Origin: Salvelinus alpinus | Lineage: Eukaryota; Chordata; Actinopteri; Salmoniformes; Salmonidae | Direction: 5' to 3' | NCBI RefSeq assembly: GCF_045679555.1 | Contig: NC_092096.1 | Location: 27,598,364-27,662,363 of the forward strand | Length of the DNA stretch: 64,000 nt | In this document: piece after piece, positions 820 through 10,988 of the stretch | How positions within the stretch are numbered: position 1 is the first letter of the stretch | Layout: each line of letters begins with the position of its first letter | The notes under the pieces: generated by a model | Databases searched by the model: none | The model's input: only the letters and a program-made list of their open reading frames with translations | Told to the model about the DNA's origin: nothing | Program-made: the position numbers and the translations under genes

Positions 820-3800
820 TTTGGTTGATTATATTATATTTGATCAGGATCAGGAAGAGCCTTGCCGGTACTACAACAGTGGTCACTGCCGGGATGGGAA
901 AAGGTGCCACTACCGACACGTCTGCAAATACGCACTGAGAGGCAACTGTCGCTATGGAGCCAAGTGTCGCCTCAAGCACCCCAGCTCCTCCTCTGACAGT
1001 GATGGAGGTGGTGGGAGGAGGGACAGGAGGAGGTCTTCATCTGGAGGTAGAAGAGGAGGTGGGAGAGAAAGGAAGAGGTCATCTGGAGGGAGAGGAGGAG
1101 GTGGGAGAGAAAGGAGGAGGTCTTCATCTGGAGGGAAAGGAGGAGGTGGGAGAGAAAGGAGGAGGTCTTCATCTGGAGGGAGAGGAGGAGACCGGGCCAG
1201 GGAAAGGTCTTCATCTAGAGGTGAGACATGTACTAGGCTGTAATAAGGTCAGGGAGGGAGGGAGGGAGGGAGAGGAGGAGACCGGGCCAGGGAAAGGTCT
1301 TCATCTAGAGGTGAGACATGTACTAGGCTGTAATAAGGTCAGGGAGGGAGGGAGGGAGGGAGAGGAGGAGACCGGGCCAGGGAAAGGTCTTCATCTAGAG
1401 GTGAGACATGTACTAGGCTGTAATAAGGTCAGGGAGGGAGGGAGGGAGTCGACAAGTTTGCTTCAATTCAATCCATAAAGCTTGAAACGTTTAGAAATGT
1501 TAATTGACCAAGACTGAAAATTGACAATGGCCTAATCAAGCTAATATGTTTGTGTTTGTGACCATGAACAGAGATATTTATGTATGCAATGAATGAGCGT
1601 GTTGGGAGCGTAATTTACCTGTTTTCATTTTGTGACTCCCTGTCAGAGGCTCAGCGTGACTTTAGCGGGCCCTACAAATGGCAGTTGGAAGATGGACATG
1701 GCTGGAAGGACATAGCCAACGATCACATTCTGGAGGCACAGTACTCCCAACCCAACAATAAGGGCATCAATATCTACAACACCCCCTACGGGTAAGGAGA
1801 GGAAGTACACCTGATGGTGTTAGTTTAGTTCAGAGCCAGATAGGCCTACATACATTGTCTTTATATATATATATGCTACCATTCAAAAGTTTGGAGCCAC
1901 TTAGAAATGTCCATGTTTTTGAAAGAAAAGCACATTTTTTGTCCATTAAAATAACATCAAATTGATCAGAAATACAGTGTAGACATTGTTAATGTTGTAA
2001 ATTACTATTGTAGCTGGAAACGGCTGATTTTTAATTGAATATCTATATAGGCAAACAGGTCCATGATCAGCAACCATCACTCCTGTGTTCCAATGGCACG
2101 TTGTGTTAGCTAATCCAAGTTTATCATTTTAAAAGACTAATTGATCATTAGAAAACTCTTTTGCAATTATGTTAGGACAGCTGAAAACTGTTGTTCTGAT
2201 TACTTAATATTGTGTGTGTTTGTCTCTCTCTCTCTCTCTCTCTCTCTCTCTCTCTCTCTCTCTCTCTCTCTCTCTCTCTCTCTCTCTCTCTCTCTCTCTC
2301 TCTCTCTCTCTCTCTCTCTCTCTCTCTCTCTCTCTCTCTCTCTCTCTCTGTGTAGAGCAGTGAGTATTGATTTCAAGGCGATGAGAGTCAGTAAGAAGAA
2401 TCTGAGGGTGAGGCGTTTGGATGGTCAGCAGACAGAGTGGATCTGGTTCTACTCAACTAGCAAAGGCTGGATCAAGTATGGAGAAAAGGTACAGCAAAAC
2501 ACCATGCAACAACCCCAAGTGTACCATTGTCTTTAGAAGCTGAACTTAGGAACATGCCAGGGTTGAGGTCAATTCCATTTCAATTCAGTCAATTCAGGAA
2601 GTAAACTGAACCATGGAAACCTCTTCTGGAACTCTGGAATCCTCTACTCTAGTCTTAATTCAGCTTAGAAACATCATATCATATGACATGTAATGCTATT
2701 GAGAGAAAAAAAGTGTCACAGAAACCATTGTTGAGTGACAGGAAGAGTGTTTGTTTTTTCTCTCAGGATTCCAAGGGAAACCCAGGCCCCATCCAGAGTT
2801 CTGAGATCGAGCAGAAATTCCAACGCAACCGTAACGGTTCTCTTACGTTCAACATCGGCTCCGATATCTTCGAGATCCGATTCAGACGTGAGTGAGACTG
2901 AAAGAAACCTTAGACAAACAATTGACATTAAAACTTGAATGTCAAATCAATCAAATCACATTTTATTTGTCACATGCGACAAATTCAACTGGTATAGACT
3001 TTACCGTGAAATACTTACCTAAGAGCCCTTTCCCAACAATGCAGAGGTAAAAAGTAAGAAACATTTGCTAAAGAAAAAAAGGAAATAGTAACACAATAAA
3101 ATAACAATAACGCGGCTATACAGTATATACAGTTGAAGTAGGAAGTTTACATACACCTTTGCCAAATACATTTAAACTCAGTTTTCCACAATTCCTGACA
3201 TTTAATCCTAGTAATAATTCCCTGTCTTAGGTCAGTTAGGATCACCAATTTATTTTAAGAATGTGAAATGTCAGAATAATAGTAGAGAGAATGATTTATT
3301 TCAGCTTTTATTTATTTCATCACATTCCCAGTGGGTCAGAAGTTTACATACACTATTTTGATTTTCCCATGATGTCAAGCAAAGAGGCACTGAGTTTGAA
3401 GGTAGGCTTTGAAATACATTCACAGGTACACCTCCAATTGACTCAAATTATGTCAATTAGCCTATCAGAAGCTTCTAAAGCCATGACATTATTTTCTGGA
3501 ATTTTCCAAGCTGTTTAAAGGCACAGTCAACTAAATGTATGGAAACTTCTGACCCACTGGAATTGCGATACAGTGAATTTTAAGTTAAATAATCTGTCTG
3601 TAAACAATTGTTGGAAAAATGAATTGTGTCATGCACAAAGTAGATGTCCTAACCGACTTGCCAAAATAATAGTTTGTTAACAAGAAATTTGTGGAGCGGT
3701 TGAAAAACGAGTTTTAATGACTCCAACCTTAGTGTATGTAAACTTCCGACTTGTACTGGGCCGTACGTGCTAATGGATCCATGTCCTTCACTGGTCGTTG

Positions 3801-9500: not shown

Positions 9501-10988
9501 TTCACTATTTTTTTGCAGCTTATCCATTGCCCAATCAGCCCCCACCGTAATTGCCTCACCACCGCCCTCTGCTGGCTACACCTGGGAATTCATGGGCGAG
9601 GAGGGAGTGTGGATAGAATACCAGACTCCAGTGAGTGGGACATTATTTTATTCCTTGAACCCTTGCAAATAGCACACTACATGACATATTGTATTTTGTA
9701 TATGCCCTCATTAAGGTGAGAAAGGGGGAGGGAGACAGTCATGGTATAGCAGCACATAATATGTGGCTTTTTCCAGGGTTGCTCACTGGAGAGTGCTGGG
9801 ATTGAGAGACGCTACCAGAAGAACCCTAAGGGACAGATACGCTTCAAAGCTGGGAGATATTCCTACACCCTCGACTTCTCAGGTCAGACTGACTTAAATA
9901 CTGGTGTACCATAACGTGACCTGTCTAGGAACACTCCTGAAGTTTTCTGTGTCTCTTCCAGGCATGTGTCAGACCAACGTTCGCATCGGGACCAAAAGAA
10001 TTGTGAGGAGAACTCAATGTGAAGCTCAACAAACAAGCAGGTATGCACAATACAGGCTGGGAACCTAGAGCAAGGAGTTTTACTGACCAAAGTCTTGTCC
10101 CTATAGGTTATGGCCAATAGTTTTTCCTGGTCTGGTCATGTAGTCAGGAAGAAGTCGTGGCCATTAGTCAAGGCCTTTCTGACCTGCTAGAGAGAACCCA
10201 TGTGTAACAACTGTACAATGTGACAAATAATGAAAACTCTATGTCTAATTCCCGTCCTCCTCTCACAGTGGAGGAATGGGTTTACAGTCCCGTTGGCAGT
10301 TTCAAGACGTGGACGGAAGCTGGAAAGACTTCGCCAAAGTAAGATGAACCGTTTTACTGCTCGCTCTCATCAGACTCCATAAGAGTAGTCTTCATATTAC
10401 TACATTAAAGACACATGACCAAGCAGCGTGTGTGTCGACTTAATCCTGTAGAGAAGCGGCACTTGCAGTGTATCCAGCCAGGACATTGAAGCCCAGTACC
10501 AGCAGAACCCAAATGGAACTATGAACTTCACTACCAGGAGATTCAGCTATCAACTGAACTTCTCAGGTAAATATGTAATCTTCACAGAACAAGTGCCTAT
10601 AGCAGGGGTGTCAAACTCCTTCCCTGGAGGGCCTGGTGTCTGCTGGTTTTTCCTTGTAATTAAGACCTAAACCACCAGGTGAGGGGAGTTCCTTACTAAA
10701 CAATGACCTTCATTCATCAGTCAAGTACAAGGGAGGATCGAAAACCCGCCGAGACTCGGCCCTCCATGGAATGAGTTTGACAAGTGCCTAACGGGTAAAG
10801 GATAGCAGTTGGTTGAAGGTTGAGGAATAGTTTAATTGATTTGATGAATCCAAACTCCAAACCAAGCGTTTCCTGTGTTGGAGAACATTATTGTCATGAC
10901 CTAACAGTTGTTTGATTTGTCTTTCGCAGCCCTGACCCAAAGAAACCTGTCCACTCAGACCACCCGATCTGTTCGACGCCTGAACTAA
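6567..10988 (+). CDS. Four-WWE-domain protein, tandem paralogue (start not found)
   Basis: Exons: 6567-6636, 6741-6873, 7151-7295, 7450-7570, 8431-8518, 9519-9630, 9777-9882, 9962-10040, 10269-10338, 10452-10566, 10930-10988 (stop TAA). All introns are GT-AG and the 366 visible codons stay in frame. The first exon is a poly-Glu stretch without a usable ATG, so an upstream start exon is missing from this model. Four WWE domains are visible: HFEWQLYKGQRW onward, IGWYFKDILIW onward, YTWEFMGEEGVW onward, and SRWQFQDVDGSW onward; the last three end in a (Y/F)xYxLxF strand. Basic linkers (MTQTN...VRRRP, MCQTN...VRR, LTQRN...VRRLN) follow the second, third and fourth. There is no CCCH finger and no PARP domain. 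WWE domains bind ADP-ribose, so a multivalent ADP-ribose reader is inferred. Confidence 0.8.
7795..7974. mobile_element. Foldback MITE with about 35-bp TIRs
   Basis: The left end (GATTCAACCCATAGCGTGGA) and the reverse complement of the right end (AATTCAATCCATAGTGCAGA) pair imperfectly. The interior is short and non-coding. It lies in an intron of the second WWE gene. Confidence 0.65.
7977..8326 (-). mobile_element. Non-autonomous repeat, same family as 20772-21128
   Basis: This segment is the reverse complement of the repeat at 20772-21128. Shared blocks include CTTGAAGAATATAACTTATA, TGAGCTTAGTTCAACTGTC and CCCCATCAGAACCC. The ends resemble TTAAAGGGGCAATCTGCAG. There is no coding capacity. 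Confidence 0.7.
8573..8955. repeat. 40-bp minisatellite with a 53-56-bp derivative
   Basis: The unit starting GGATAGGGCCTACGGTGAAC is repeated at 40-bp spacing from about 8575 to 8800. It then switches to longer units of roughly 53-56 bp that add AGCCTCTTCCCCT. The first exon-flanking copy begins 55 bases after the donor at 8519. It fills part of a 1-kb intron of the second WWE gene. Confidence 0.9.
10609..10786. mobile_element. hAT-type MITE (CAGGGGTGTCAAACTC family)
   Basis: The element begins CAGGGGTGTCAAACTC and ends GGAATGAGTTTGACA, an imperfect inverted repeat whose right end has lost its last bases. AGTGCCTA occurs just outside both ends and may be the 8-bp target duplication. The same family recurs at 41803. 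Confidence 0.75.

What the first reader, a model, noticed from the sequence alone, without database searches (positions are those of the whole stretch)
820..10988. Tandem pair of WWE-array genes without a PARP domain: seven WWE domains in about 10 kb
Sequence: two adjacent genes carry 2xCCCH+3xWWE and 4xWWE, all splice phases agree, and both end in stop codons with no ADP-ribosyltransferase domain. Knowledge: WWE domains of PARP12, ZC3HAV1 and RNF146 bind ADP-ribose, and PARP12/ZAP are interferon-induced antiviral proteins. Inference: multivalent ADP-ribose readers, perhaps decoys or scaffolds in antiviral ADP-ribosylation, expanded in fish. This is the best candidate for an undescribed system in the window.
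Basis: partly seen in the sequence, partly recalled or inferred. Interest (0 to 1): 0.8.

Follow-up and report, generated by a model that had tools for sequence, protein, structure and literature searches.

The report
Fish genes of repeated ADP-ribose-reader domains
Two neighbouring fish genes, related to the antiviral proteins ZAP and PARP12 but without their enzyme-like end, carry rows of domains that probably grip ADP-ribose tags; a carp protein with a similar row is already in print, so this looks like a new member of a known kind.

Summary
Two plus-strand genes (848-4656, 6389-10988; 17 of 17 introns GT-AG, phases agree) encode CCCH2-linker-WWE3 and WWE4. All 7 WWEs pass Pfam cut-offs. 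Three PARP queries found no catalytic domain in 64 kb. Corrections: gene 1 is cut at its 5' side, so two fingers is a minimum; and the WWEs differ. Both first WWEs are ZAP-WWE1-like and lack the adenine-binding glutamine, four have a nearly complete ADP pocket, one is partial. Exons repeat as three-exon modules, and both genes stop in a matching last exon, arguing against random truncation. Both full IRF-elements of the window lie in this locus, one 467 bp before gene 2's ATG. Most likely: interferon-regulated, catalysis-free multivalent ADP-ribose readers of ZAP/PARP12 descent; binding, induction and antiviral role are inferred. 'Undescribed system' is too strong: a review describes a carp 'ZAP-like' protein with three WWEs and no zinc fingers, virus-induced and protective on overexpression (its PARP status is not stated there).

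The parts
848..1220 (+). Gene 1 first exon seen: two adjacent CCCH fingers (within 848-991) and an RG/S-rich repetitive linker; acceptor at 848 or possibly about 820; gene start lies outside the window
   Evidence: frame open back to 740, no in-frame ATG
1647..2425 (+). Gene 1 WWE1 (exon 1647-1791 and start of exon 2356-2488), ZAP-WWE1 type without the ADP-ribose pocket glutamine
   Evidence: (WWE_4 43.4 bits, cut-off 24.5)
2420..4012 (+). Gene 1 WWE2 (end of exon 2356-2488, exon 2767-2887, exon 3957-4035), partial pocket
   Evidence: (WWE 45.0 bits, cut-off 21.1)
4197..4656 (+). Gene 1 WWE3 (exons 4197-4402 and 4601-4656) and stop codon TAG
   Evidence: (59.8 bits)
5747..5752 (+). Likely gene 1 polyadenylation signal AATAAA (further AATAAA at 5384, 5446, 5692)
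5911..5922 (+). IRF-element GAAAGTGAAAGC, 467 bp before the gene 2 ATG
3873..3884 (+). IRF-element GAAAGTGAAAGT in a gene 1 intron, 75 bp before an in-frame ATG at 3959 in exon 5; possible internal promoter
6389..6636 (+). Gene 2 start codon and N-terminal acidic segment (exons 6389-6451, 6567-6636); in-frame stop upstream at 6359
6741..7229 (+). Gene 2 WWE1 (exon 6741-6873 and start of exon 7151-7295), ZAP-WWE1 type without pocket glutamine
   Evidence: (WWE_4 32.7 bits)
7230..8492 (+). Gene 2 WWE2 (exons 7151-7295, 7450-7570, 8431-8518), pocket nearly complete
   Evidence: (45.4 bits)
9519..10040 (+). Gene 2 WWE3 (exons 9519-9630, 9777-9882, 9962-10040), pocket nearly complete
   Evidence: (57.1 bits)
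10269..10988 (+). Gene 2 WWE4 (exons 10269-10338, 10452-10566, 10930-10988) and stop codon TAA; PARP11-like, full set of the six polar contacts
   Evidence: (63.1 bits)
11566..11571 (+). Likely gene 2 polyadenylation signal AATAAA

Best explanation
Two tandem paralogues derived from a ZAP/PARP12-type ancestor that lost (or never had) the C-terminal PARP domain and multiplied its WWE domain by in-frame duplication of a three-exon module. In each protein the first WWE packs as a scaffold, as in ZAP, while the second and later WWEs hold the adenine and phosphates of ADP-ribose. The array thus grips ADP-ribosylated targets several times at once. Gene 1 adds two RNA-type zinc fingers and an RG/S-rich linker and would bridge RNA and ADP-ribosylated protein; gene 2 is a pure reader. 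Made on interferon signalling, they would gather or shield targets marked by PARP12/PARP14-type writers during infection. Shown here: gene structure, domains, pocket residues, absence of a PARP domain in the window, IRF-element matches. Inferred: origin by module duplication, binding, interferon induction, antiviral role.
For: 7 of 7 WWEs above Pfam cut-off. Nearest solved relatives: ZAP finger5-WWE1-WWE2 for both genes (E 5.4e-16 and 1.5e-12) and PARP11 WWE for gene 2 WWE4 (E 5.5e-13). The tree puts both first WWEs with ZAP WWE1 (99/98) and pairs gene 1 WWE3 with gene 2 WWE4 (81/86, below the starred level). At the contact positions named for HUWE1 and TRIP12 (Tyr, Asn, Thr, Asn/Thr, Arg) plus the adenine Gln, gene 2 WWE4 keeps 6 of 6; gene 1 WWE3, gene 2 WWE2 and gene 2 WWE3 keep 5 of 6 each, with Phe at the stacking position. 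Repeating exon phases and matching last exons with the stop. NG86 dN 0.49, dS 1.41 between gene 1 WWE3 and gene 2 WWE4; dN is below dS in 11 of the 11 pairs (of 21) that gave a dS. 2 of 2 full IRF-elements of the window are in the locus on the coding strand; chance expectation 0.38 per window, 5 of 100 shuffles had 2 or more. Losing PAR binding lowers ZAP's antiviral potency. Carp three-WWE ZAP-like protein with reported antiviral effect.
Against: No expression or binding data. The stacking residue is Phe in four WWEs and Tyr in one, while the binders described have Trp or Tyr. Gene 1 WWE2 has Phe for the phosphate Tyr and no clear Thr/Arg set. dS gave no value in 10 of 21 pairs and is near saturation in others, so the selection estimate is weak. 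GAAANNGAAA is enriched window-wide (10 against 3.24 expected), which weakens the IRF-element argument. The tree is small, with long branches flagged. Gene 1's 5' end is unseen.
Confidence: 0.55

Rival explanations
1. The arrays act mainly by WWE-WWE protein contact with PARP12/PARP11-type enzymes (partner, adaptor or dominant-negative), and ADP-ribose binding is secondary.
For: Human PARP11 and PARP12 bind each other through their WWE domains, and PARP11's anti-Zika action does not need its enzyme activity (passages of PMC8240438). Gene 2 WWE4 is PARP11-like. The two pocketless WWE1s could be contact surfaces.
Against: Pocket residues are kept in the later WWEs, which contact alone would not demand. 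In the same paper PARP11 lacking its PARP domain did not enhance PARP12 action.
Confidence: 0.2
2. Decoy or cap: the readers cover ADP-ribose marks and protect them from viral or host hydrolases, or compete with other readers.
For: Multivalent reader without a recognised writer or eraser domain in the two proteins (Pfam; no PARP).
Against: No direct evidence; not testable here.
Confidence: 0.12
3. Decaying fragments of duplicated PARP12-like genes: truncated remnants without function.
For: Repeat-like sequence precedes gene 1 and its intron holds a 22-bp relic of exon 6; a perfect 90-bp triplication carries its splice donor three times.
Against: 17 of 17 introns GT-AG and no frameshift or premature stop in 19 exons; the two genes share a matching stop-bearing last exon; dN below dS in 11 of 11 measurable pairs.
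Confidence: 0.1
4. The two genes are one transcription unit, read through from gene 1 into gene 2.
For: Phases would allow gene 1 exon 6 (end phase 1) to join gene 2 exon 3 (start phase 1).
Against: Gene 1 has its own stop and polyA signals up to 5747; gene 2 has its own IRF-element, ATG and upstream in-frame stop; the join would remove the last WWE3 strand with its glutamine.
Confidence: 0.04

Closest known systems
Common carp 'ZAP-like' protein (Zhang et al. 2024, Fish Shellfish Immunol 154:109981; seen only as passages of the review PMC13030082; the primary paper is not held)
   Same: WWE array without zinc fingers in a teleost; named ZAP-like; upregulated on SVCV challenge, overexpression diminished the cytopathic effect
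   Different: Three WWEs and no zinc fingers; gene 2 here has four, gene 1 has two CCCH fingers plus three WWEs. Whether the carp protein has a PARP domain is not stated in the passage; orthology not tested (no carp sequence available).
ZAP/PARP13 (ZC3HAV1) central domain, finger 5-WWE1-WWE2 (PDB 7kzh, 7tgq)
   Same: WWE1-WWE2 tandem with pocketless WWE1 and pocketed WWE2
   Different: No finger directly before WWE1 here, one or two extra WWEs, no PARP-like domain
PARP12 (fish PARP12a, PARP12b)
   Same: CCCH plus tandem WWE; gene 1's finger pair resembles Pfam's PARP12-like tandem, below its cut-off (20.9 against 27 bits)
   Different: No catalytic domain found here; only two fingers visible
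PARP11 WWE (PDB 2dk6)
   Same: Closest solved relative of gene 2 WWE4 (E 5.5e-13)
   Different: PARP11 has one WWE followed by a PARP domain
ZC3HDC1L, a teleost-only ZAP/PARP12 relative (PMC8102003, passages)
   Same: Teleost-specific branch of the family
   Different: Has a PARP-like domain and an additional domain after it

Membership tests
WWE domain proteins | WWE domain above the curated profile cut-off | tested here: met
   7 of 7 domains; 6 of 10 raw unspliced ORFs
ZAP/PARP12 (ZC3HAV1/PARP12) | Tandem WWE1-WWE2 with ZAP-WWE1-type first domain | tested here: met
   (99/98 for the WWE1 group; long branches flagged)
ZAP/PARP12 (ZC3HAV1/PARP12) | Five CCCH fingers, the fifth directly before WWE1 | tested here: not met
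   Gene 2: no CCCH; gene 1: two seen, none next to WWE1. Gene 1's 5' end lies outside the window, so its total is open
ZAP/PARP12 (ZC3HAV1/PARP12) | C-terminal PARP or PARP-like domain | tested here: not met
   Both genes stop after the last WWE; no PARP hit in 64 kb with three queries, best E 0.19
ADP-ribose-reading WWE | Adenine-binding Gln with phosphate-contact Tyr, Asn, Thr, Arg and a stacking aromatic | tested here: met
   4 of 7 nearly complete (stacking residue Phe, not the Trp/Tyr of known binders), 1 of 7 partial, 2 of 7 absent
ADP-ribose-reading WWE | Measured binding | not testable with these tools
   needs protein
Carp ZAP-like WWE array | Several WWEs, no zinc fingers | tested here: met
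   Gene 2: four WWEs, no CCCH; gene 1 has two fingers, so not met there; orthology not tested
Interferon-stimulated gene | Induction by interferon through ISRE/IRF elements | tested here: inconclusive
   2 IRF-element matches in the locus, 0.38 expected per window; no expression data

The most novel reading that the evidence does not exclude
A fish-specific, interferon-driven arm that only reads ADP-ribose: a ZAP-type WWE1-WWE2 core extended with PARP11-type WWEs by three-exon module duplication into polyvalent clamps, one member tied to RNA by CCCH and RG/S segments and one a pure reader, with an internal interferon promoter in gene 1 that may add a one-WWE short form. Such writerless polyvalent readers would condense or shield ADP-ribosylated targets in infection.
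Probability: 0.25. Interest if true: 0.65.

Novelty: new member of a known kind. Interest (0 to 1): 0.4.

Why it matters
In human proteins WWE domains sit singly or in pairs, mostly beside a PARP or ubiquitin-ligase domain. Natural arrays of up to four, without any enzyme, would be ready-made tests of whether multivalent reading of ADP-ribose alone restricts viruses. The review says that fish lack a ZAP orthologue; these genes and the carp protein suggest a parallel use of its PAR-reading half.

Tried and rejected
Cryptic PARP domain: rejected within the window (consensus checked); sequence upstream of the window was not seen. Additional WWE exons elsewhere: none below E 0.01 outside 1568-10985 among stop-to-stop ORFs of 15 aa or more; one 22-bp relic at 3772-3793. 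Viral carriers of the array: one scan of viral contigs with gene 2 WWE2-WWE3 found no relative. Chance WWE-like ORFs: rejected by shuffles and held-out models. Genome-wide WWE copy number: the genome search (where own) did not complete. Literature: ten searches of the held open-licence library, whose listings were capped at 12 to 30 rows; only two papers hold any of six phrases for WWE arrays, the review PMC13030082 ('three WWE domains') and PMC8961608 ('WWE repeats', a Notch-ligase review by its title, listing only). Subscription journals are mostly not in that library. PMC13403563 (anchovy genome) has no occurrence of WWE or PARP in its main text; passages of PMC12648952 and PMC8796319 name parp12 or ZAP in fish responses without domain detail. 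In one search the HUWE1 row starts after its true stacking Trp (Trp1619), so that cell of the table is wrong and was not used. The printed output was cut by my own 9000-character limit; its unseen queries (PARP consensus, CCCH, gene 2 WWE4) were rerun.
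Full report
Check of the observation. Two plus-strand genes can be read without any forced step. Gene 1 has seven exons in the window (848-4656) and gene 2 twelve (6389-10988); 17 of 17 introns are GT-AG, all phases agree and no exon holds a premature stop. Pfam finds WWE domains above cut-off in 7 of 7 domains, and two CCCH stretches in gene 1. This does not rest on my splicing: of 10 raw stop-to-stop ORFs, 6 match a WWE model, 1 CCCH, 3 nothing at E 0.01. A model of one gene's WWEs finds the other gene (7 ORFs from 5800 on, 4 ORFs before 5800, none outside the genes in those stretches), and 50 shuffles gave nothing above 8.2 bits. 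No PARP catalytic domain turned up in the 64 kb with a recalled consensus, human PARP12 or human ZAP (best E 0.19); the consensus finds PARP12 in the PDB at E 9e-57. Outside 1568-10985 no ORF reaches E 0.01 with the seven-WWE model.

Gene 1 is incomplete: its frame is open to 740 without an ATG, and the sequence before it resembles repeats elsewhere in the window (Tc1-type by eye), so its start lies beyond the window and two fingers is a minimum. Gene 2 looks complete, with an ATG at 6389, an in-frame stop upstream at 6359 and a polyA signal at 11566. A consensus donor at 6292 suggests a noncoding first exon, by inference.

Anatomy. WWE units are built from a three-exon module with phases 2-0, 0-1 and 1-2, which can be copied without breaking the frame. 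Gene 2 shows it three times in a row, the last one ending in the stop; gene 1 shows it once, then a fused version (exon of 206 bases, phase 2 to 1) and the stop exon. The last exon of each gene starts in phase 1 and codes 18 and 19 residues of matching sequence before the stop, so the stop after the last WWE is probably old and shared (inference). Downstream, a kinase-like ORF (20118-20585; SCYL2 by my reading, not by a tool) and a DEP-domain ORF (31115-31465) lie on the other strand.

Which ZAP or PARP relative. Both proteins match the finger5-WWE1-WWE2 region of ZAP best in the PDB (E 5.4e-16 and 1.5e-12), then PARP11. The fourth WWE of gene 2 is closer to PARP11 (5.5e-13) than to ZAP WWE2 (9.6e-5). 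No PARP12 WWE appeared in the hit lists, so PARP12 could not be compared. In a small tree of 16 rows both first WWEs group with ZAP WWE1 (99/98) and gene 1 WWE3 with gene 2 WWE4 (81/86); only 3 of 13 inner branches are starred, several other places are unresolved and long branches are flagged.

Pockets. In ZAP, WWE2 binds PAR; Gln668 and Trp611 mutants do not, and Asn670, Ser673 and Thr675 contact the phosphates (PMC8853533, passages). In HUWE1 and TRIP12 the phosphate set is Tyr, Asn, Thr, Asn/Thr, Arg beside the adenine Gln (PMC11269756, passages). At these columns: gene 2 WWE4 has Y Q N T T R; gene 1 WWE3 and gene 2 WWE2 have Y Q N T V R; gene 2 WWE3 has Y Q N I T R; gene 1 WWE2 has F Q N and a shorter basic loop. 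The stacking residue is Phe in four and Tyr in gene 1 WWE2, against Trp in ZAP and the other E3 ligases and Tyr in RNF146 and PARP11. The two first WWEs lack the Gln (Val, Ala), as ZAP WWE1 does (Cys). So four good pockets, one partial, two none. The Phe is a point against firm claims of affinity.

Regulation. The full IRF-element RAAASYGAAASY (motif recalled) occurs twice in 64 kb, both on the coding strand inside this 10-kb locus: 5911, 467 bp before gene 2's ATG, and 3873, in a gene 1 intron 75 bp before an in-frame ATG at 3959. Chance gives 0.38 per window; 5 of 100 shuffles had two or more. The looser GAAANNGAAA is enriched across the whole window (10 against 3.24), so this is suggestive only.

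Selection. The clearest pair, gene 1 WWE3 and gene 2 WWE4, has dN 0.49 and dS 1.41. Of 21 pairs, 11 gave a dS and in all 11 dN is lower; 10 gave none. This is compatible with purifying selection but weak.

How it probably works. The evidence fits a reader without a writer: a scaffold WWE followed by ADP-ribose-gripping WWEs, used several at a time. Gene 1 would join RNA (CCCH pair, RG/S-rich linker; strongly basic, 79 K+R to 36 D+E) to ADP-ribosylated partners; gene 2 would bind them alone. In human ZAP, PAR binding is not strictly required but raises antiviral potency. Direct WWE-WWE binding to PARP12, as human PARP11 does (PMC8240438, passages), is the main rival.

What is known. The review PMC13030082 (passages) says that fish lack a ZAP orthologue, but that a carp 'ZAP-like' protein with three WWEs and no zinc fingers rises after SVCV and lowers its cytopathic effect on overexpression; it does not say whether a PARP domain is present. 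The primary paper is not held. PMC8102003 (passages) reports PARP12a, PARP12b and ZC3HDC1L in teleosts and PARP-less ZAP/PARP12 sequences in a few species. PMC12204182 (passages) describes birth-and-death evolution of PARP12/ZAP paralogues lying close together. PMC6612602 (passage) lists a zc3hav1 among genes induced by trout interferon in salmon cells; whether that is one of these genes is unknown. Hence: a new member of a known kind, with two features not seen in those passages, four WWEs in one protein and a CCCH-linker-WWE3 partner next door. If the carp protein turned out to have a PARP domain, 'new variant' would be the better label.

Limits. The genome search did not complete, the structure job did not finish, and no fish homologue could be fetched. 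Species, copy number, expression and conservation are therefore open.

Noticed in passing
1175-1448: A 90-bp unit repeated three times at 100% match carries the end of gene 1's exon 848-1220 with its splice donor in each copy; reading past the first donor hits a stop at 1241, so only the first donor gives an open product.
   Followed up: partly
3772-3793: A 22-bp stretch identical to exon 6 (4348-4369) lies in a gene 1 intron just after what looks by eye like a Tc1-type element (about 3130-3760): probable relic of a WWE exon.
   Followed up: partly
3873-3961: IRF-element followed by an in-frame ATG in exon 5: possible internal interferon promoter for a one-WWE short form with a basic KRKRK segment near its start.
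   Followed up: partly
8569-8957: Minisatellite of 40- and 53-bp units in a gene 2 intron.
   Followed up: no
42370-42900 and 45558-46781: Two fucosyltransferase (GT10) ORFs on the plus strand; the second is a 408-aa single ORF matching both GT10 Pfam models.
   Followed up: no
50481-51548: Long minus-strand repetitive ORFs (HYxVCGQHFTL / YVDSILH units), probably a minisatellite read as protein.
   Followed up: no
55722-56285: DDE_3 transposase-like ORF on the minus strand.
   Followed up: no
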